Below, piece after piece: positions 2,626 through 16,248 of a stretch of DNA of 64,000 nt. The notes below the pieces were generated by a model. That model was not told the DNA's origin and searched no databases. It saw nothing but the letters and a program-made list of their open reading frames with translations. Position 1 is the stretch's first letter; each line of letters begins with the position of its first letter. The stretch is taken from positions 372,001 through 436,000 of the forward strand of contig JAYKXP010000008.1 of assembly GCA_037176845.1 (NCBI GenBank). The letters run 5' to 3'. The translations under genes and the position numbers were made by a program. This stretch comes from Paramarasmius palmivorus. Its lineage: Eukaryota > Basidiomycota > Agaricomycetes > Agaricales > Marasmiaceae.

Positions 2626-3050
2626 TTAGGCTAGGGAACACGAGTCACTGGAAACTGGAAAACGAATACAGTCAGTGGTAGCTTCGATGGCAACGGTCAT
2701 CAGTCTCTTGGTCGCCTCTTCCAAAAGATGTGCCATGGCCCTGGATTCCTGGTCCCTGTCGGAGGTGTTTTGCATGACATGCAATTGCGTTTTCAACGAC
2801 TGCTGTATCTCGAAGAAACGGTTTAGGGCCGCATCGACTTGATCCGGATACGCATGCCGTTTAGAAACACGACAGCATAGAGTCCAACGCATAGTACACA
2901 TACCGTAGTAGCATGCTTCAAAGATAGCTCCAAAAGACTGAGTAGCCGACGACACCACCTCGAGAAGAGACAATTCGGCGGAAGGGGAAGACGAGGTTTC
3001 AACAAATGGAGCCGGCTTGGGTATTAGTACAGTAGATTTGGATTTGATGG
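2626..3050 (-). CDS. Small hypothetical protein or gene remnant
   Basis: A reading frame of about 115 codons ends at 2626. It contains a helical, charged C-terminal half (VDAALNRFFEIQQ, then LLEEATKRLMTVAIEATTD) that looks like protein and not antisense noise. A possible 66-bp intron with a GTATGT donor lies near 2825-2890. Upstream the frame stays open through a Ser/Pro/Thr-rich stretch to about 3110, but I see no convincing start codon, so the 5' end is unresolved. It converges with the preceding gene, leaving 115 bp between the two stop codons. I do not recognise a family. It may be a truncated remnant. Confidence 0.3.
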
Positions 3051-3466
3051 TTGTATGCGTCTGGGCATTCGTATCCGAATCAGGCCTCGCAGAAGATTTT
3101 CGAGATGTGGACGAGTGAGTTAGCCATTTTCAAAGCTCACGAACTATCACCCAGATTTGCGAAGTATGGCAAAGTTTCACTACCCTCGAAGCAAGCTTGC
3201 AGGCGTACAGGGTAAATCGGATGAAGATTAATGGGCAAGACGAAAAACGAACAAAAACTGGCAAAAGAAACTTTCAAAACATTCATTGTTCCAAACGGTC
3301 CGTGATACAAGTGATACAAGTGGCTACTTTGAGTGTAGGGGAGAAACGGTGCGATACAGTGCGCTGTCAAGTCCAAGTTCTAATGCGAGTCTGAATAAAG
3401 TTCCAAAGGCAAGTCCAAATTCCAAATGCAAGCCCAAATCTGTTGTTCTCGTCCATCGTGGTGCGT

Positions 3467-5431
3467 TCAGCCGCTCATGCCGTTCCAATTATCCAGGCTG
3501 CTGCTGCGCTGATTGCCGTTCCCGTTGCCCATATCCATTTGGGAGTCCTCGCCTTCATACGAACCGTTTCCGCTGTACTCGTCTGTGCCTCCCAAACCGT
3601 GAGCAGGTCCAAAAGACTCCTCAATGGCGTACACGCTTTGACTGCCGGATTGGTCGGGATATACTCCATATGACCCATAGCCGCTGTTGCCAGAGTAGCC
3701 CCTATACGAACTGTTACTCCCAGTTTGACCATGTCCTCCGTTTCGGTTCCCATTAAAACCACCATCACCAGAGTTTCCACCATAGCCATTGTGACCAGCA
3801 TACCCTCCATAAAAGTCGTTTCCAGCCAAGGGAACGCCATAACCATCTCCGCCAGAGTTGTCGAAATGGCCATGTCCTCGACTCGAGTCTTGAAAGCTCC
3901 GAGCATAGTTGTCGTTACGAGAGTTGGCGCGGGAGAAGCCATTACCACCAGGGTGACTATACCAGGAGTTGTTTCCAGCTCCGCCAGAGTGGCCGACAAA
4001 GGGACCATTACGACCAGGCTGAACGTGCCCTTCATACGAAAAGTTCTTTCCGCTGGAACTACCGCCAGAGTTTCCAAAGAACTCTCCCTTGGCAGAGATT
4101 TGGGAAACTGAACTATGAGTCCTTTGGTGCGAATGCTGGTCGTCTGTGTCCATATCTTCTGGCAAGAGCGGTGGGTTTCGATAGGAATCCTCAGATTGGG
4201 ATTGTTCTGCGGATTGTCAGACGTGACCAGCGTTGCTGAACTTGCGATTGCGCATAGATGAGGTAGAGGCTGAGTTCTGATTATGTGCGTTGGATTGAAA
4301 AACGTTGCCAGCGTTGCTGGACTTGCGAGATAGGAATGAAGACGAGGAGCTGGGCTGGTGAACGCGTGCAATAGAGGGTGAGGTGGTTTGGGATGAAGAC
4401 GACATGCGCGAATCAGAGGGTGAGGTGACTTGGCGAGACTTGGATTGGCGTAAGGGGATCTGAGCTTTGGTTTCAACAAACCTGTGCGACTCTATGGAAC
4501 TTGGTTAGAGTAGGTGTATGCGGGCCCATGAATGAGTTACCTGGCTTTGACCTGGAGTTTTTCATTATTTCCAACCTCTTCAATGTGTCGACTGCTTGCA
4601 AGAGATTCTGCGTCGCAAGTAGCAACATTTCCCTACCCTTAAGATTTTGACCATTTGTTTGGTCGTCTTCTAGTTCGGAGAGGTCAGAGAGTGGGCTCTC
4701 AGAGAGCTCTTTGTCTTCGAGTCGTTTGGGGTCTATGAACATGGTTTGAGAAGAGATATGTGGGGCCAGCCTGAGGAGTCAGACAGCTATCTGGCTTGGC
4801 TTCAGAGGAACCGGAGACGTTCAAGGAGTTGAGTGATTCTGTTTTAGGTGGTCAGAAAGGTTAGATATGGAGGGACTGGCACTTGCTTATTTGCTGAGCT
4901 TCCTTCTGCATTGCCCGTAGGAATTTTGCCGTGGCGCGCTCCTGTGTCTGGGCGGTCTCGAGCGATGTCGAGCGATATCGGTCGTCTTGGTCCTCGTTTT
5001 CGGAAGATTCGAAGATTTCAGAGTCAGGTTGTGACTTGGAGAGCTCAGGTTCGTGTGTCACAGAGAACGATGTCTCGGAACGAAAAAAAAGTCGAGGATT
5101 TAGCAGACGAAGCTGAGTCGGAGACAACGAGAGTCGAAGTGGTAGAAGTTAGTTTTGATTTGCGCATCGTTGAAGATTCTTGATTTGGAGCTGACGAGCA
5201 AGTTAGCGGCCGTAGTATGCAGTTTCATCAACCAAGCAGTTACCCTTCACGTCCGTAACCGAGGCAGACGATGCGATTTCGGTAAAGCTGGGATTCCCTC
5301 GTATTATATCTGCATTACGCGTCAGGATACTGTAATGAATACGGATGGAAGCGGTACTCACTGGCAACGGTTTCTTTCCTCACATGCTCCGCTCGAAAGA
5401 CAGCCTGCTCTATATTAGTTGGAACGTTCAT
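3467..5431 (-). CDS. Glycine-rich protein with coiled region, frame broken at an A8 tract
   Basis: I read exons 5431-5362 (MNVPTNIEQAVFRAEHV), 5309-5244, and one from 5190, then two short introns near 4880 and 4770, an exon around 4742-4550, and a long last exon to 3467. The middle carries acidic/Ser stretches (SEIFESSENEDQDD) and leucine-rich helical segments (KFLRAMQKEAQQISK, LLATQNLLQAVDTLKRLE) typical of short coiled coils. The C-terminal third is very rich in Gly, Asn, Ser and Tyr (GGYAGHNGYGGNSGDGG), like low-complexity RNA-binding or phase-separating tails. The frame is lost at the eight-A run 5083-5090; one base fewer would join the N-terminus to the rest. An in-frame TGA near 4217 can be removed by a 69-bp intron with a GTCACG donor. 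No family recognised. Confidence 0.55.
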
Positions 5432-5905
5432 TCTTGAGGTATCTGCGAGTCCGAGTTAGTCGACTCGATGGTTCTTGTCCACTTGGGCTTCGGGAAGAAA
5501 AACTTTGAGGAGAGAAGATGGGAATGTAAGATGGCGAATTCGCTCGACGCTGGCCTCTTATAAGTCGACGCGTTTCCGAATTAATCAAGAATTAATTAAT
5601 CTCCAGTCAGATCTTGAAGCCTCCGACCACTTACGTCACTCTGGCATCTTTGACTGCAGACAACTGGCAACTGCTAAGCAACATAACAAAAGAACACGAT
5701 ATTGGAAGGTACACACTACTGATACAAGCACGCTCAGCGACAGCTGCATATACAGGCCATGAATGGGTAATGAACTATATGTCTTTTTTAGTCCTTTATA
5801 TGCTTTTTTTCGTCGATTTTCGGGGGATTATCTGTAGGAAACCGAACAAGTTCAAACCGAGAGTGCAGAAGGAAACTCGAGGGGAAAGCATTCTCGGAAT
5901 ACTTT
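5432..5905. other. Spacer between two minus-strand genes
   Basis: No supported gene. The region is AT-richer than its neighbours and should hold the promoter of the glycine-rich gene and the 3' end of the repeat-precursor gene. Open frames here on the plus strand have no family resemblance. Confidence 0.4.
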
Positions 5906-6674
5906 TCAATTGCGGCCACGACTTCGTCCCCTACCGCGAGACCCAGAATCGTTGCCGTGCCTGCGGGCCTCGAGATTACGTTCCCTAGATCTACCTCTGC
6001 CCCTACTTCCAGAATCGTTTCCATGCCTGCGGGCCTCGAGATTACGCTCCCTGGATCTACCTCTGCCCCTACTTCCAGAATCGTTTCCATGCCTGCGGGC
6101 CTCGAGATTACGCTCCCTGGATCTACCTCTGCCCCTACTTCCAGAGTCATTTCCATGCCTGCGTGCTTGGAGGTTACGTTCCCTAGATCTACCTCTGCCC
6201 CTGCTTCCAGAATCGTTGCCGTGTCTGCGTGCTTGGAGGTTACGATCCCTAGATCTACCTCTGCCCCTACTTCCAGAATCGTTTCCATGCCTGCGGGCAT
6301 CGAGGTTGCGCTCCCTGGATCTACCCCTGCCCCTGGAGCCAGAACCGTGTCGACGAGCAGTAAGTACGACGCGTTCACGACTACGACCACGTTCAGCGCT
6401 ATCGCCGTGACGCCTTTTCGCGACCTAACCAAGTAGTAAAGTCAGTAAGAGAGAGTTGAGAAGAAGGAGCGGCTAACCTCAATGAATTCGGTACGTCCAC
6501 GAATTTCATTACCGGTGACACTCAGCTCGTCAGTTCCAATGGGGTTGATCTATAGATTCAATGTTAGTGGCCAAAAGATGCATAAAAAAGTAAGAGGTTA
6601 TTCACCGGAATGGCGACACCGCTAGATAACACGGCAGCGACGATGAAGAGGATAAAGTTCTTCTTGAATTGCAT
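5906..6674 (-). CDS. Secreted arginine-rich tandem-repeat precursor with dibasic sites
   Basis: Three exons (6674-6606, 6549-6478, 6424-5906) with clean GT-AG borders give 219 residues. Residues 1-23 are a signal peptide (two Lys, then the hydrophobic run FILFIVAAVLSSGVAIP). A short acidic stretch follows, and residues 48-219 consist almost wholly of repeats. The motif RRHG occurs eight times, five of them opening full 22-residue units. Each unit runs RRHGNDSG, an RGRGRSRER core, then NLEA, NLQA or NLDA. The dibasic RR (KRR in the first copy) at fixed spacing resembles Kex2-type processing sites in fungal repeat precursors, which release several small peptides. The peptides would be strongly cationic. 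RG/RS runs also occur in nucleic-acid-binding proteins, but the signal peptide argues for secretion. No frame breaks. Processing and function are inference. Confidence 0.75.
5910..6360 (-). repeat. 66-bp coding tandem repeat array
   Basis: A 66-bp unit, one per 22-residue peptide, repeats about six times with few differences between copies, plus two shorter variants at the 5' end. The best-conserved stretch is the part coding for Leu-Glu-Ala-Arg-Arg-His-Gly. Copies nearest the 3' end of the gene are most alike, which suggests recent unequal exchange. Confidence 0.8.
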
Positions 6675-6744: not shown

Positions 6745-6752
6745 TTATATAG
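6745..6752 (-). promoter_or_regulatory. TATA box of the repeat-precursor gene
   Basis: CTATATAA on the minus strand lies 71 bp before the ATG at 6674. That distance allows a transcription start near 6715 and a 5' leader of about 40 nt. Confidence 0.5.
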
Positions 6753-6759
6753 GTTTTCG

Positions 6760-8340
6760 TCCAGAGATGGGAATGAAAGACGACAATACGGAGGTTTTGA
6801 GCAAGCGCAGCGATGGTCCCACAGGTTGAAAGTATATTATTTGTCGTCAGGTGGGAGATGTACCTAGATGCAGAGAGTCCGAGTCAAATTTTGGACGTGC
6901 AAGAGGTATTAGGTCGCTCTTGCGCCACCCATCGTAATTCCCCCGCAGCACCGGGAAAGTATGGAGCCAGAACGTGTTGGTGATACATGTAGGTGATGAG
7001 AGTCCTGAACTGTAGGATTTTGTCCCACTGGTGAGAAGATGAAGTATCGAGGGAGCAAATAGATCATCAGATGGAATGATTGACGAGAATTCTTTGAGAG
7101 AAGCCATGCTTGAAGGAATGAGGGGATCTTGATGGTAATACAATGACGACGGGGTTAATACACAAAGAATGGGTGTCGAGGAAGAATTTTTGACGGGATT
7201 TTGCGTCGATGATGACCTTCTGACTACCCGCCATGTTCCGGGAAAGACCGCAGGCTTTGCATACATGGTCAAGGCTCTTCGAGTGCCGGTCGACTGCGCA
7301 GAACCTGGGACTTTTAATGCATATTTGTGAAGTGTTTAAAATTGCAACCATATGTCCTGAAAGTGGTGACTACCGCAGTCATTGTGAGATACAAAACTCG
7401 CCTTTTATTATACGCCACTCGGAGTTGGCACCTTGAAGTCGCCCTTTAGCTATAAACTATAGCATAGATACCGTGGCACTTGACGAGCTTGGCGAATGAG
7501 TGAGTGTAAGAAGCAAAGGAGTTGCCAATGCTAACGTCACGTTGTCTGGTTGATGACCGGCTAAAGCGTGTCGATCCATATCGAGCTATTTTTACCCACA
7601 GTCCCAGCTACCCTTTCGCGAATTGCCTGAGGCACTTGAGCGCTGCCTGGGGACCAAGGTCCAACAAATTCCTCTCACATACACTATCCTGCATGACACC
7701 CCTAACAGAACGCCTGCAGCTATCTCCAGTGCTCAAACTCGGTAGCTCTGTCTCGTGGTCAGAGTCAGCCTATCAATGTTTCAATGCTGCTTTGCCCATC
7801 AATCGGTCGCCTAATTAAACTCGACTGCGATGATCGTGTTGAGTTGTAAAATGTACTGCAAGTTTCTTCTCTGCTGGTGTGTAGGTCTGACTGCTCGATA
7901 GCTTGATGTTCGGAATGGTGTCATTGGCGATCAACAGCAACACTTCCATACGATGCCCGCGACAAGTAAGAATGCAGATGCCCTGCCACTTGGAGACCCT
8001 GCTGAGCTCCGCGTCGGCCGTTTAACCGATGACAGGGTCACTTACTCAGCTCGTTTTCAAGGCCGATAACGCCTCGCGACAGAATTCTATGCAAAAAAGC
8101 TGGTATTAGTCTTTGAAAAATCACTTTGAGGTCTTATTATGTGGTCTCGTTAATTAGCAGCCTCGAAAACAGACCTAGAACCCTCTAGATGAACACTGAA
8201 GGCTAATGAACACTCGGACTCAGAGGCTCGGAGAGTTACCGAAAGAACCAAGAGCCGAATGATGCCGGTAGGCACGGCACGATGCTGATCTCCTTTCGCC
8301 CTGCGATGGAGAGCTCAAAAAATGACATGACCCACGGCGA
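6760..8340. other. Long stretch without a supported gene
   Basis: The longest open frames are 6847-7272 (minus) and 7522-7818 (plus). Neither shows a domain, a consistent set of introns or family resemblance. The minus frame is Ser/Pro-rich and might be a degraded exon. I see no tRNA or transposon ends. The right end contains the MFS promoter. Confidence 0.4.
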
Positions 8341-11725: not shown

Positions 11726-13172
11726 ATGCCGACAGAGTATACGCATGGGGACCAAGTTCCAGTCGAATCTCAGCCAGCTCAAATCAAGTTATGTACCCAC
11801 TGTCATCGTGCGGTAGAACCTGGAAACTCGGTCTTCGTCGTCGGTGCAGAGGCTATCCTTTGTGCTGGATGCCAGACTCAAAGTCATCTTCTTTTCCCTT
11901 CTCGATCTCCTCAGGCGCCGGCGTCGCCTCTAGTCGACATTGATCCTCGGTCATCCCCGACATGCGGTGAACCTGTGTATACAGCGCGTGACAACTCACG
12001 GTGTACAACAGACCCGTTTGAGGCTAGTGACAGCCTGGAACCGCTGCTGTCGAGCCCCGAATCCATTTATCACGAAGCTGTGGTCATACCCTCTTATCAA
12101 GTGAAACCTTCGCTGTCCGCTCTTCACACCCCAGTCAAGCCCCACCCTATTATCACCTCGACCACATCACTCCCCATCATCCATTCGCAGCCTCAGAGTC
12201 GACCGCAGAGGCATGAGCGACCGTATCTGGCGCCCAGCCCGCTCACGGACATCTCTCGCCTTCGAGTGCGGTCTCAGACACACCATTGTCTGTATCCCGG
12301 AGCTATCTTCCAGGGAACACAGAAGAGTGGTCGGAATAGTTATGATGTGACTGTAACGATTGTGGTGCGTGTGTTTAGCTCGTGGCCTTGTGCATGTTTG
12401 CCTTATGTCTCGGAATAGGATGTGGACTTTACCTCTTCCTTCCTATGTGGATACCTTCGCATATGCGGCCTTACAAACGACTATCCTGAGCTGACGACGT
12501 ATTTTGACGCTGAGATTATCGGAAGCCGATATGGCTTCTTGACGCAGAACTGGGGGGCTACTGAGCAAGAAGATCTTGTACATTGGTCCCGCTTTCCTGC
12601 ATTCCGACATGTTAAACACGAACTTCAAAAACCTCAGTTGACCATGTGTGACCGGGACAGGGGTGCAGTCTTCATGAGGTGGAAGGAAAAGTTCTTGGTT
12701 CCTGATCATCGAGTACAAGATATTACTGGAGCTAGTTTCGCTGGTAAGGTTCCGATTCACACTATTTTGGGCTTTCTTCTTATCCCGTATGCATAGGCTT
12801 CTACTATGTCTGTGTTGATTTCAACCCGTCAACATCGAAAGCCTCGGACTCGGATCATATGCCTCTCACTCCAGAAAATGACGAGATAGATCCGTCTGCA
12901 ATTGCGCCGCCCCAGAAGGTCGAATTCCCTCGTCGTCGCCGTGACTCGAGCACTCGAAGGCGAGGCCGTTCGGCATCTGCCACTCGTGTACATACGACAC
13001 CGACAGCTACTATGAGCGGATTCTACTACCATCAAAACTCCGAGCCGTGCGTAGAACTCTTTGCTTCTCGTGGCATATGCCAACGTTCTAACGACGATAC
13101 CCATATAGCTATCAGCAGTTGTCCTTATCCCATGTTCCAGAGAGCACGAGTGGAAGCTTCGAGTTCGCATGA
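11726..13172 (+). CDS. GID4: GID4/Vid24, substrate receptor of the GID ubiquitin ligase
   Basis: Gid4 recognises N-terminal proline degrons and brings gluconeogenic enzymes to the GID/CTLH ubiquitin ligase when glucose returns. Four exons splice cleanly, with introns at about 12365-12419, 12746-12796 and 13050-13115. The beta-barrel domain begins at LYPGAIFQGTQKSGRNSYDV, continues through SFLCGYLRICGLTNDYPELT and YFDAEIIGSRYGFLT, and ends near FAGFYYVCVDF. The protein stops with SGSFEFA, close to the usual end of the family. There is an insert of about 50 residues rich in Arg/Ser between the barrel and the last exon. The N-terminal 200 residues are Pro/Ser-rich and carry CTHC...CAGC, a CX2C-X19-CX2C pair that could bind zinc and is not part of the Gid4 fold. 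Confidence 0.92.
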
Positions 13173-13819: not shown

Positions 13820-16248
13820 ATGCCGGAGAAGAATAGCTCTGGCGACGGCCGGGGTCCTCGCGTTGTGATTGTAGGCGCTGGGTACGTCATCAATGTGAAT
13901 TGAACCGCCTTCGAATTCTTACTTTCTCTCCGGTTAGTCTTGCCGGGATTTCGACCGCGGTATACCTGAGGAAGCAGCTGCCGTCTTTTGATAACTTTAC
14001 TGTGAGTTCACAGTTTCTCGTCCATGTAAATACCCGATTCTAACAGCTTCATAGATATACGAAAGGGCTTCTTCGTGAGTCTCTGCTAGTTGGTTTTCGG
14101 GTTCTGGCCTGAGATTTTCCCCGTTGTAGGGCTGGTGGTACCTGGAGAGTATGTGAACGACAGGATTTACGTTGACTTGCAATGCTAACCACCAAGAACC
14201 CAGGACAACACGTACCCAGGTGCGCAGAGCAGAAATTGTCTTGAAAAGCTAGTCTAACTTCATTACGATGCAGGATGCGGAGTCGATGTCGGTGCCATTG
14301 GTACAGTCTTTCAACAGAATTAAATCCAAATTGGACCTCGTACTATGTCAGTCAACCCGAAATTCGAGCTTACTGGCAAAGTCTTTTCGACAAGTACGAC
14401 CTACAAGCGAAAACCGTCTTCAACACTTCGATAACTCGCGCAAAGTGGCATAGTGACACGCACAGCTACACCTTGTTTTTGCATGACGAAGTGACTGGTC
14501 AAGATAGACAAGAAGAAGCTGAAGTTGTGATTTATGCTATTGGGGGCTTTATGAGCCCGATGTTCCCAAAGGACATTCCTGGGACTGAGACCTTCAAAGG
14601 GGTCGCGTTTCATTCTGCACGGTGGAGGCATGATGTCGATCTCAAAGAGAAGAGGGTTGGTGTCATTGGAAACGGCTGTTCCGCGTGCGTTTTCTGCTCC
14701 TATAGAACGCGTTTCAACGGGTGTTTGACCTGGTTTTTAGGGCACAATTTGTTCCGGTCATATCGTCGGATCCTTCGGTTAAAGTTATCAATTTTTGTAG
14801 AACCCCTCAGTGGTTTCTTCCACGAGTTGAGCATTGTCATCTGACCCCAGTGTTCGAGGTATTGACTGTTTTTTACAAGGGCAACTACAGCTATCCGTCA
14901 TGGATTCGATGGATTTTCAAGTATTTCCCAATCGTCATGCGACTGTACCGAAGTTACTTGATGGCTGTTGTAAGGGTTTCTTGTCCAGCTATACTTTGTG
15001 TATCCCTAAAGTTCATGTTTTAGAGTGACATTGGCTACTTGGTCTTCAACAAGTCCAACAAGCGGACTGTGGCAGCGACGCGTCGGGTTCTTATCACCAT
15101 TTCTGGCTTTCAGGGTCATTGAACTGATATCCGCTCAGATGTTTATTCGCTATATTGAGAAGATGGCGCCAAAGGATAAGGTCGAGGAGCTAGTCCCCAA
15201 ATATCGTGAGTCCTATTAGTATTAAGGAGATGTTCATGAAGCTGATTCGTGGACAGCTGTTGGTTGCAAACGCATCATTATCGATCCGGATTACTTGACT
15301 GCTCTCGGGCGACCGAACGTGGAACTTACATGGAGTCCCATAGAGTGTGTTGCTCCAGATGGACTCAAATTGCGTTCGGGAGAGGTAGTTCCTCTTGATG
15401 TGGGTATCACTTACTTCGCGCGGCGAACAGGCACTGATCACAACTGTATGCCTTCAGGTGATAATCTTTGGAACAGGCTACTCTATCGTGCGTTTGGCCT
15501 CTCCGTGAGATACTCTGCCTTCAGCTTCTTTACACAGGAATCGGGATTAAATATCGAGGGAGTGGACGGTGTCACCGTACGCGATTACTTCCAATCCAAA
15601 GGCGGGCCGACAGCCTATGTCGGAAGCGCAATACCCGGCTTCCCGAACATGTTCATTCTTGTCGGTGAGTCGTTCTTCCTTTACCTGCCTTTCTACCTGA
15701 TTTACCTGAACTTCAACCAGGGCCAAATGTAGCCACTGGGCATGCATCTCTGATATTCAGCCAAGAATGCCAGGTGAACTGACATCATATCACTCGAATC
15801 ACATCAGGAACTAAAAGTCTCCACAGATACAGATGGCCGTTAACATAATCAAGGCCATTGTTGATGGGAAGATTCAATCTGCGCAGAGTATTTATCACCC
15901 CTCCTTGCCCTGAGCACACTTTCTGATCCCTGTCGGACAGTAACACACACTGCTTGCGATGATTACAACGACTGGCTTCAGAAACAATTGGATATTTCCG
16001 TGTGGCAAGACTGTAATTCATACTATCATGTTGCAGGGACACACAACAGCAAGATTGTTGCGCTATATCCTGGCTCGGTAACGTCGTTCTGGTGGCGGAC
16101 CCGAAAGTTGAATCCGTCTCATTGGCACGTCGAAGGTGCCACTACTAGTGATTGGACTGGGAATAGTAGGGCAACGATTAGGACCGCGCTGACTAGCCTT
16201 GGGGTAGTTTGTATATCCGCATTGTTGTATCTATACCAGTACAAGTAG
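13820..16248 (+). CDS. FAD/NADPH monooxygenase, Baeyer-Villiger type, one frame break
   Basis: Such enzymes oxidise ketones or aldehydes with O2 and NADPH. The N-terminus RVVIVGAGLAGISTAVYL is the FAD-binding Rossmann loop. HWYSLSTELNPNWTSYY follows, then FKGVAFHSARW, matching the Baeyer-Villiger fingerprint FxGxxxHxxxW, then the N(A)DP loop RVGVIGNGCSA. Later blocks are VIIFGTGYSI and YVGSAIPGFPNMFILVGPN. I count about 14 introns. The frame slips by one base near 14290-14298, between CGVDV and HWYSL; one extra base there (for example a longer C run) would restore it. The last exon ends in a hydrophobic segment (LTSLGVVCISALLYLYQY), a likely C-terminal membrane anchor, which is uncommon for the family. 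The natural substrate is unknown. It could serve detoxification or a secondary pathway with the nearby exporter, but no other pathway genes are near. Confidence 0.85.

What the first reader, a model, noticed from the sequence alone, without database searches (positions are those of the whole stretch)
5906..6674. Secreted precursor made of eight arginine-rich repeats with dibasic sites
The sequence shows a signal peptide and eight RRHG-headed repeats with a 22-residue period and a cationic RGRGRSR core. Fungal Kex2-processed repeat proteins (such as those feeding ribosomal peptides, pheromones or effectors) share this plan, but I do not recognise this repeat. Near-identical 66-bp units imply recent amplification. 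If Kex2 cuts after RR, one gene would yield several near-identical cationic peptides of about 20 residues.
Basis: partly seen in the sequence, partly recalled or inferred. Interest (0 to 1): 0.85.

Follow-up and report, generated by a model that had tools for sequence, protein, structure and literature searches.

The report
Mushroom gene encoding repeated secreted peptide
This gene of a cacao-infecting mushroom appears to encode a secreted chain of eight similar short peptides, probably cut apart by a processing protease, and related genes in other mushrooms are often misread in public gene models.

Summary
On the minus strand (window 6674-5906) lies a three-exon gene for a 219-residue protein: signal peptide, short pro-region, eight RRHG-headed repeats. 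The genome is that of Paramarasmius palmivorus. With this species, 14 named species carry RHG units. [quoted passage not shown] I found this family in no main text that I searched (supplements were not open to me). Two corrections. First, the best-conserved part is the head RHG(D/S), not the arginine-rich core, which shrinks to RHGDSHG in most Psilocybe units. Second, the cutting signal looks like aliphatic-x-x-R before RHG: 75 of 78 junctions fit, counting nine with an inserted x-Pro dipeptide. That predicts LEAR|RHG, one residue earlier than 'after RR', with x-Pro removed by a STE13-like peptidase; cutting after RR stays possible. The C286 copy (probably the other haplotype) has six units with mostly synonymous differences. 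A linear secreted peptide, perhaps a signal, is likeliest; function, expression and cleavage are untested.

The parts
6606..6674 (-). exon 1: signal peptide MQFKKNFILFIVAAVLSSGVAIP
   Evidence: start and splice site shared with copies C286 and C42
6550..6605 (-). intron 1, 56 nt, GT..AG
   Evidence: inferred, no RNA
6478..6549 (-). exon 2: pro-region INPIGTDELSVTGNEIRGRTEFIE
6425..6477 (-). intron 2, 53 nt, GT..AG
   Evidence: inferred, no RNA
5906..6424 (-). exon 3: VAK + eight repeat units + stop
6356..6415 (-). unit 1 RRHGDSAERGRSRERVVLTA (20 aa), preceded by VAK; predicted cut VAKR|RHG
   Evidence: position derived from exon 3
6296..6355 (-). unit 2 RRHGSGSRGRGRSRERNLDA (20 aa); predicted cut LTAR|RHG
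   Evidence: position derived from exon 3
5966..6295 (-). units 3-7, five near-identical 22-aa units RRHGNDSGSRGRGRSR(D/E)RNL(Q/E)A of 66 bp
   Evidence: position derived from exon 3
5909..5965 (-). unit 8, C-terminal RRHGNDSGSRGRGRSRGRN (19 aa), same protein sequence in the C286 copy
   Evidence: position derived from exon 3
6745..6751 (-). TATA-like sequence about 70 nt before the ATG
   Evidence: read by eye; no promoter scan was run

Best explanation
A single-gene precursor of several linear secreted peptides (a KEX2-processed repeat protein) of a family found across Agaricomycetes. SHOWN by sequence: gene structure, coding frame, repeat array, related precursors elsewhere, conserved junction pattern. 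INFERRED: the signal peptide takes the protein into the secretory pathway; a Kex2-like protease cuts after the R of aliphatic-x-x-R (VAKR|RHG, LTAR|RHG, LQAR|RHG, LEAR|RHG), a carboxypeptidase of the Kex1 kind trims the C-terminal R, and peptides of about 20 residues such as RHGNDSGSRGRGRSRERNLEA are released. In relatives with LxxR|xP|RHG a STE13-like dipeptidyl peptidase removes x-Pro, giving the same RHG start; in relatives with a second RR inside the unit a further cut would give short peptides such as RHGDSHG. My best guess for the role is an endogenous linear signalling peptide of mushroom-forming fungi, with copy number free to vary while the sequence is held by purifying selection; this last step is the weakest (about 0.4 on its own; coat peptide or antimicrobial about 0.2 each, host effector about 0.1). 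The confidence below is for the processed-precursor reading in either register; the earlier register alone I put at about 0.5.
For: Coding frame and purifying selection on the repeats. Three searches gave relatives (sequences); 10 of the 15 named database models used start M-x-F-(K/N) like the window protein. Junctions: 75 of 78 in 18 sequences of 14 species have [LIVFM]xxR directly before [RK]HG (66) or before xP[RK]HG (9); of 388 other R residues 34 have such a residue at -3. The residue class was my choice; L, I or V, which are in the published P4 list, make up 71 of the 75, F 3 and M 1, in 28 different four-residue contexts. The next best register reaches 7 of 78, or 10 with x-Pro kept, which are the nine x-Pro sites plus one: the aliphatic-x-x-R module moves as a whole when x-Pro is present. 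x is D, G, S, A or M. Unnamed fragments: 24 of 24 junctions have the R and 23 the aliphatic residue. LxxR as expanded Kex2 motif: PMC8528282 (passages). Cleavage after single R and XP/XA removal seen for other KEPs in Pichia: PMC9769878 (results parts 1 and 2 of 3 and discussion read). The genome has matches to P_proprotein (2), DPPIV_N (2 on one contig) and Peptidase_S10 (46).
Against: No transcript, peptide or cleavage data. Junctions come from related repeats, found partly because they contain RRHG, so 75 of 78 are not independent cases. In the preferred register P2 is Ala in 54 of 75 sites and K, R or T in 18; Ala is not among the best P2 residues given in PMC8528282. Kex2 sites cut in one in-vitro study had few positive residues after the cut (PMC2515848, passages), which speaks against R there. 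Three of 78 junctions do not fit (one reads VFAR-DS-RHG; two lie in one doubtful Sphaerobolus model). No x-Pro occurs in the window gene or its two genomic relatives. The leader is less constrained (C8 versus C42: 6 synonymous, 14 non-synonymous codons). P_proprotein, DPPIV_N and S10 matches are family hits; orthology to Kex2, Ste13 and Kex1 was not tested.
Confidence: 0.77

Rival explanations
1. Same precursor, but Kex2 cuts after the second basic residue (RR|HG, PR|HG, KRR|HG), so that mature peptides start with His-Gly. (This shares the processed-precursor reading above and differs by one residue.)
For: R directly before H or its replacement in 73 of 78 junctions; RR in 62 and PR in 9; Arg and Pro are listed among accepted P2 residues (PMC8528282); H after the cut avoids a positive residue there (PMC2515848).
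Against: Does not explain the aliphatic-x-x-R module that ends one residue earlier in 75 of 78 junctions and shifts with x-Pro; four junctions read RK (three in C42, one in Ramaria); KRRHG units already hold an aliphatic-x-K-R site one residue earlier.
Confidence: 0.32
2. The protein is secreted but stays whole, as a disordered arginine-rich wall or matrix protein; the repeats are structural.
For: RG/RS-rich low-complexity repeats; no cleavage data.
Against: Conserved protease-like junctions with an optional x-Pro dipeptide, while core length and composition vary between species.
Confidence: 0.1
3. A processed peptide whose role is antimicrobial or host-directed, made by a plant-associated fungus.
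For: Net positive core in this species; M. palmivorus is named among the causes of thread blight of cacao (PMC8581569, abstract start in the listing; that it is the same species is recalled).
Against: Relatives in fungi not known to me as plant pathogens (Psilocybe, Sphaerobolus, Trametes; lifestyles recalled); little of the core in some of them; conservation rather than diversification between C8 and C286; synthetic peptides of other agaricomycete KEPs showed no antibacterial activity (PMC9769878).
Confidence: 0.25
4. Modified RiPP precursor of the ustiloxin (dikaritin) kind.
For: Kex2-type repeat precursor; UstYa genes exist in this genome (36 matches).
Against: None of the 36 UstYa matches listed is on contigs C8, C286 or C42 (the search warns that counts of large families are lower bounds); the core has no Tyr.
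Confidence: 0.03
5. The public model is right: the alternative frame (PAGMETILEVGAEVDLG repeats) is the protein and RRHG is the shadow frame.
For: The frame is open in this copy and NCBI lists it (P0001).
Against: Third-position bias in the RRHG frame; stops in the alternative frame in C286 and C42; RRHG conserved in other species.
Confidence: 0.01

Closest known systems
KEX2-processed repeat proteins (KEPs), Le Marquer 2019 PMC6339444, Umemura 2020 PMC7329392, Vogt 2022 PMC9769878
   Same: Signal peptide, three or more repeats of at least 8 residues between basic sites, repeats clustered in one region; no UstYa match on the contig.
   Different: The repeat (RHG(D/S)...) is none of the motifs named in the passages I read; the sites look like LxxR rather than plain KR/RR.
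STE13-signature KEPs of Basidiomycota and ascomycete alpha-pheromone precursors
   Same: An x-Pro dipeptide between the inferred cut and the core in some relatives (9 of 78 junctions).
   Different: No x-Pro in the window gene or its two genomic relatives; no Trp-ended core; a single dipeptide, not a run.
Rep1 (repellent) of Ustilago maydis
   Same: Repeat precursor cut into short secreted peptides.
   Different: Rep1 peptides form amyloid-like hyphal surface fibrils (PMC8528282); these units are hydrophilic and charged.
Kex2 pro-domain-processed effectors (PMC8528282)
   Same: LxxR as cleavage motif.
   Different: There a single pro-domain is removed from a protein; here the motif recurs at every unit.

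Membership tests
KEP (PMC6339444, PMC7329392) | signal peptide for secretion | tested here: met
   Hydropathy of residues 1-47, not SignalP; similar leader in relatives.
KEP (PMC6339444, PMC7329392) | at least 3 repeats of at least 8 residues between KR/KK/RK/RR sites | tested here: met
   Eight units of 19-22 residues, RR at each head; criteria read.
KEP (PMC6339444) | repeats make up at least 15% of the protein | tested here: met
   Residues 51-219 of 219.
KEP (PMC6339444) | no transmembrane segment after the signal peptide | not tested
   TMHMM not available; hydropathy was computed for residues 1-47 only.
KEP | actual cleavage by Kex2 and release of peptides | not testable with these tools
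   Needs mass spectrometry.
STE13-processed (alpha-pheromone-like) KEP | XP or XA dipeptide after the Kex2 site | tested here: not met
   Absent in C8, C286 and C42; present in 9 of 78 junctions, in Cubamyces (2 species), Lentinus, Trametes (2 species), Sphaerobolus and Mycena.
Dikaritin / ustiloxin-type RiPP | UstYa (DUF3328) gene near the precursor gene | tested here: not met
   36 matches listed in the genome, none on C8, C286 or C42.
Any Pfam family | match to a Pfam-A model | tested here: not met
   0 families at E 0.1 for each of the window protein, P0001, P0003, P0019, P0020.

The most novel reading that the evidence does not exclude
RHG(D/S) peptides are a conserved secreted peptide signal of mushroom-forming fungi, kept across orders of Agaricomycetes and overlooked because gene predictors read the repeats in the wrong frame. 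They are cut at LxxR instead of dibasic sites, with an optional STE13-trimmed x-Pro that restores the same N-terminus, and an uncharacterised receptor in the same fungi would read them.
Probability: 0.25. Interest if true: 0.75.

Novelty: new member of a known kind. Interest (0 to 1): 0.5.

Why it matters
KEPs are common in fungi but their functions are largely unknown (PMC9769878, abstract), and most types were found in a single genus (PMC7329392, section 6 read). A KEP family present in several orders of Agaricomycetes (orders recalled) is a good candidate for a basic function, and relatives occur close to mushrooms already used for KEP peptidomics (Lentinula). The LxxR register changes the peptide that one should synthesise or look for (RHG..., not HG...). 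It also suggests that surveys on faulty gene models can miss such precursors.

Tried and rejected
Alternative reading frame of the public model: rejected. RNA structure in the repeat exon: no more stable than shuffles (z +1.35, 96 of 100 shuffles fold at least as well). Biosynthetic cluster: 15 window ORFs (5, 10) of the 75 listed were scanned against Pfam; over the family cut-off came Vac_ImportDeg (12422-12796) and FMO-like with one related oxygenase model on the same fragment (14275-14844). Most exons remain unidentified, so a cluster with unknown enzymes is not excluded, though no UstYa match lies on this contig. Absence of inner dibasic pairs as evidence for processing: considered and not used, because a 20-residue core with six R lacks adjacent R by chance in about 13% (hand calculation) and units are not independent. 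One search's per-species 'dibasic' column was computed after removing x-Pro and is not used; one search gives the plain counts. Whether C286 is the other haplotype or a segmental duplication: two long collinear blocks (11.9 kb at 89.9%, 8.5 kb at 95.3%) and weaker pieces (66-78%), while two other window stretches were found once only; the haplotype reading is likely, not shown. Structure prediction was not run; I judged it of little use for a low-complexity protein. Homologue searches scored only the 7,984-7,989 candidates sharing most words, so missing species mean nothing. Literature: string searches for the repeat showed nothing that looked relevant by title; only 20 of 116 matching papers were listed; the one paper (finger millet) was not read. 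'RRHG' and 'HGDS' do not occur in the main texts of the three KEP papers; their supplements could not be opened, so the family may be listed there.

Full report
WHAT IS THERE. The minus strand of window 6674-5906 encodes MQFKKNFILFIVAAVLSSGVAIP / INPIGTDELSVTGNEIRGRTEFIE / VAK followed by eight units headed RRHG. The window's contig has the same length (1,059,973) as the contig behind a database protein whose first 63 residues are identical, VNI00_003213 of Paramarasmius palmivorus, an agaric of the family Marasmiaceae.

THE FRAME. Two frames are open over the repeats. The public model leaves the RRHG frame inside unit 1 and continues in the other frame (P0001; frame shown). Over the ten pairs of units 3-7 the changes at codon positions 1, 2 and 3 of the RRHG frame are 6, 0 and 56; against the C286 copy the repeats show 61 synonymous and 9 non-synonymous codon differences, against C42 59 and 35; the other frame is broken by one stop in C286 and three in C42. 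Under random change about 27% of changes would be synonymous. The pairing of units in these alignments is a choice, so the p values are rough. The unambiguous parts are small and agree: last unit C8/C286 2 synonymous and 0 non-synonymous; first 23 codons of exon 3 2 and 1 against C286, 9 and 4 against C42. The leader shows no such constraint against C42 (6 and 14).

COPIES IN THE GENOME. Three loci were found: C8 (the window), C286 and C42. C286 is a 36-kb contig collinear with the window region in two long blocks (89.9% and 95.3% identity) with weaker pieces further on, so probably the other haplotype; its precursor has six units (165 residues), C42's has six (172 residues). First and last units correspond between C8 and C286 while the middle differs in number and type, as expected for unequal exchange inside the array.

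RELATIVES. One single-sequence and two profile searches returned 8, 26 and 21 proteins at E cut-offs of 0.001, 0.01 and 0.01; these overlap and include metagenomic fragments without names, and only the candidates sharing most words were scored. Fifteen database proteins from 13 other named species, plus the three P. palmivorus copies, were used for counting: 18 sequences, 14 species, 78 units, 69 distinct when counted per species. Pilatotrama (P0015) was left out because its model has no RHG unit, P0001 because its frame is wrong, and 13 further proteins, nearly all unnamed fragments, were counted apart (24 junctions; 24 have R at the expected place and 23 the aliphatic residue as well). Lineages include Polyporales, Hymenochaetales, Gomphales, Geastrales and Agaricales (placement recalled except for P. 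palmivorus).

PUBLIC MODELS ARE OFTEN OUT OF FRAME. For ten database models I tested whether the part without RHG units can be read as another frame of an ideal repeat that I chose for each: in eight (P0001, P0002, P0004, P0005, P0008, P0009, P0013, P0015) the longest readable +1-frame stretch exceeded all 20 shuffles of the same residues, by a small margin in P0015 (15 against 11); in two short tails (P0006, P0027) it did not. Only for P0001 is this shown on DNA.

WHAT IS CONSERVED. Species-weighted, the residue before H is R in 96%, then H 97%, G 99%, then mostly D or S; the position before that R is R in 78% and P in 19%; the arginine-rich part is variable. The values for R, H and G are raised by how units were found. 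Most Psilocybe units are RRHGDSHGRRELDA, almost without the core.

WHERE IT IS CUT. In 66 of 78 junctions the residues before [RK]HG are aliphatic-x-x-R (LEAR, LQAR, LTAR, LAAR, VAKR, LTKR, LGKR, LTRR and so on); in nine more, aliphatic-x-x-R is followed by x-Pro and then RHG; three do not fit. The first position is L 48, I 13, V 10, F 3, M 1; I chose the class [LIVFM] with the sequences in view. Of 388 R residues elsewhere 34 have such a residue at -3, and no other register of those scanned (-8 to +11) exceeds 7 of 78 with x-Pro removed. LxxR is the expanded Kex2 motif used for fungal effector pro-domains (PMC8528282, passages). I therefore prefer LxxR|RHG, with STE13-type removal of x-Pro where present. 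Against it: P2 would be Ala in 54 of 75 sites, which is not among the best P2 residues listed; positive residues after the cut were rare among Kex2 sites cleaved in vitro (PMC2515848, passages); and RR (62) or PR (9) before the H suit a cut after the second residue. So RR|HG remains a serious rival, and both cuts may occur.

MACHINERY AND SETTING. The genome has matches to P_proprotein (2), DPPIV_N (2 on one contig) and Peptidase_S10 (46); these show families, not orthologues. None of 36 UstYa matches lies on C8, C286 or C42. Fifteen window ORFs scanned against Pfam gave a GID4-like (Vac_ImportDeg) gene and an FMO-like fragment over the cut-offs.

FAMILY MEMBERSHIP AND NOVELTY. It meets the tested sequence criteria for KEPs; cleavage and the transmembrane criterion are untested. 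KEP is a class by architecture, not by descent. The repeat is not among the conserved motifs listed in the section of PMC6339444 that I read, nor in the type table and motif description of PMC7329392 (logos are figures and not held), and the strings RRHG and HGDS are absent from the three main texts. Supplements were out of reach, so I call it a new member of a known kind.

ROLE. Breadth across fungi of different lifestyles (recalled), purifying selection on the repeats and lack of a UstYa neighbour favour a linear endogenous or ecological signal over a host-specific effector; the evidence is indirect. Knock-outs of six other KEP genes in Coprinopsis showed no difference in mycelial growth or fruiting (PMC9769878).

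Noticed in passing
L026 (G000:C22:479240-479557) and L027 (G000:C100:30427-30738): Another repeat precursor in the same genome, in two copies: hydrophobic start, then units with LEAR followed by S, T or A (ALEARSNGGSSDPTPHPRRAILEARSDGQKPTPRALEAR). If LEAR is its cutting site, it is a monobasic LxxR site.
   Followed up: partly
P0003, P0009, P0017, P0018, P0026 (Lentinus brumalis and unnamed proteins): Between units there are intron-like stretches (for example RRD-VSSCLHYP...FNQ-LEARRHG), as if some relatives carry one repeat per exon, unlike the intronless array here.
   Followed up: no
window 5943-6334: The +1 frame of the repeat array (minus strand) stays open in this copy, which is what the public gene model follows; the same misreading seems to affect seven other database models of the ten tested.
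   Followed up: partly
window 2853-5905 versus C286 11863-13056: Downstream of the gene the two collinear contigs differ: about 3 kb here against about 1.2 kb in C286, with an ORF of 334 aa (3475-4479, minus) without Pfam match in the longer version.
   Followed up: no
window 11726-12796 (+) and 14275-14844 (+): A Vac_ImportDeg (GID4-like) gene and an FMO-like gene fragment lie within 9 kb of the peptide gene.
   Followed up: no
G000:C31:374606-374956 and C85:31728-32078: Two UstYa matches with the same score, length and open frame, perhaps further duplicated or uncollapsed haplotype contigs.
   Followed up: no
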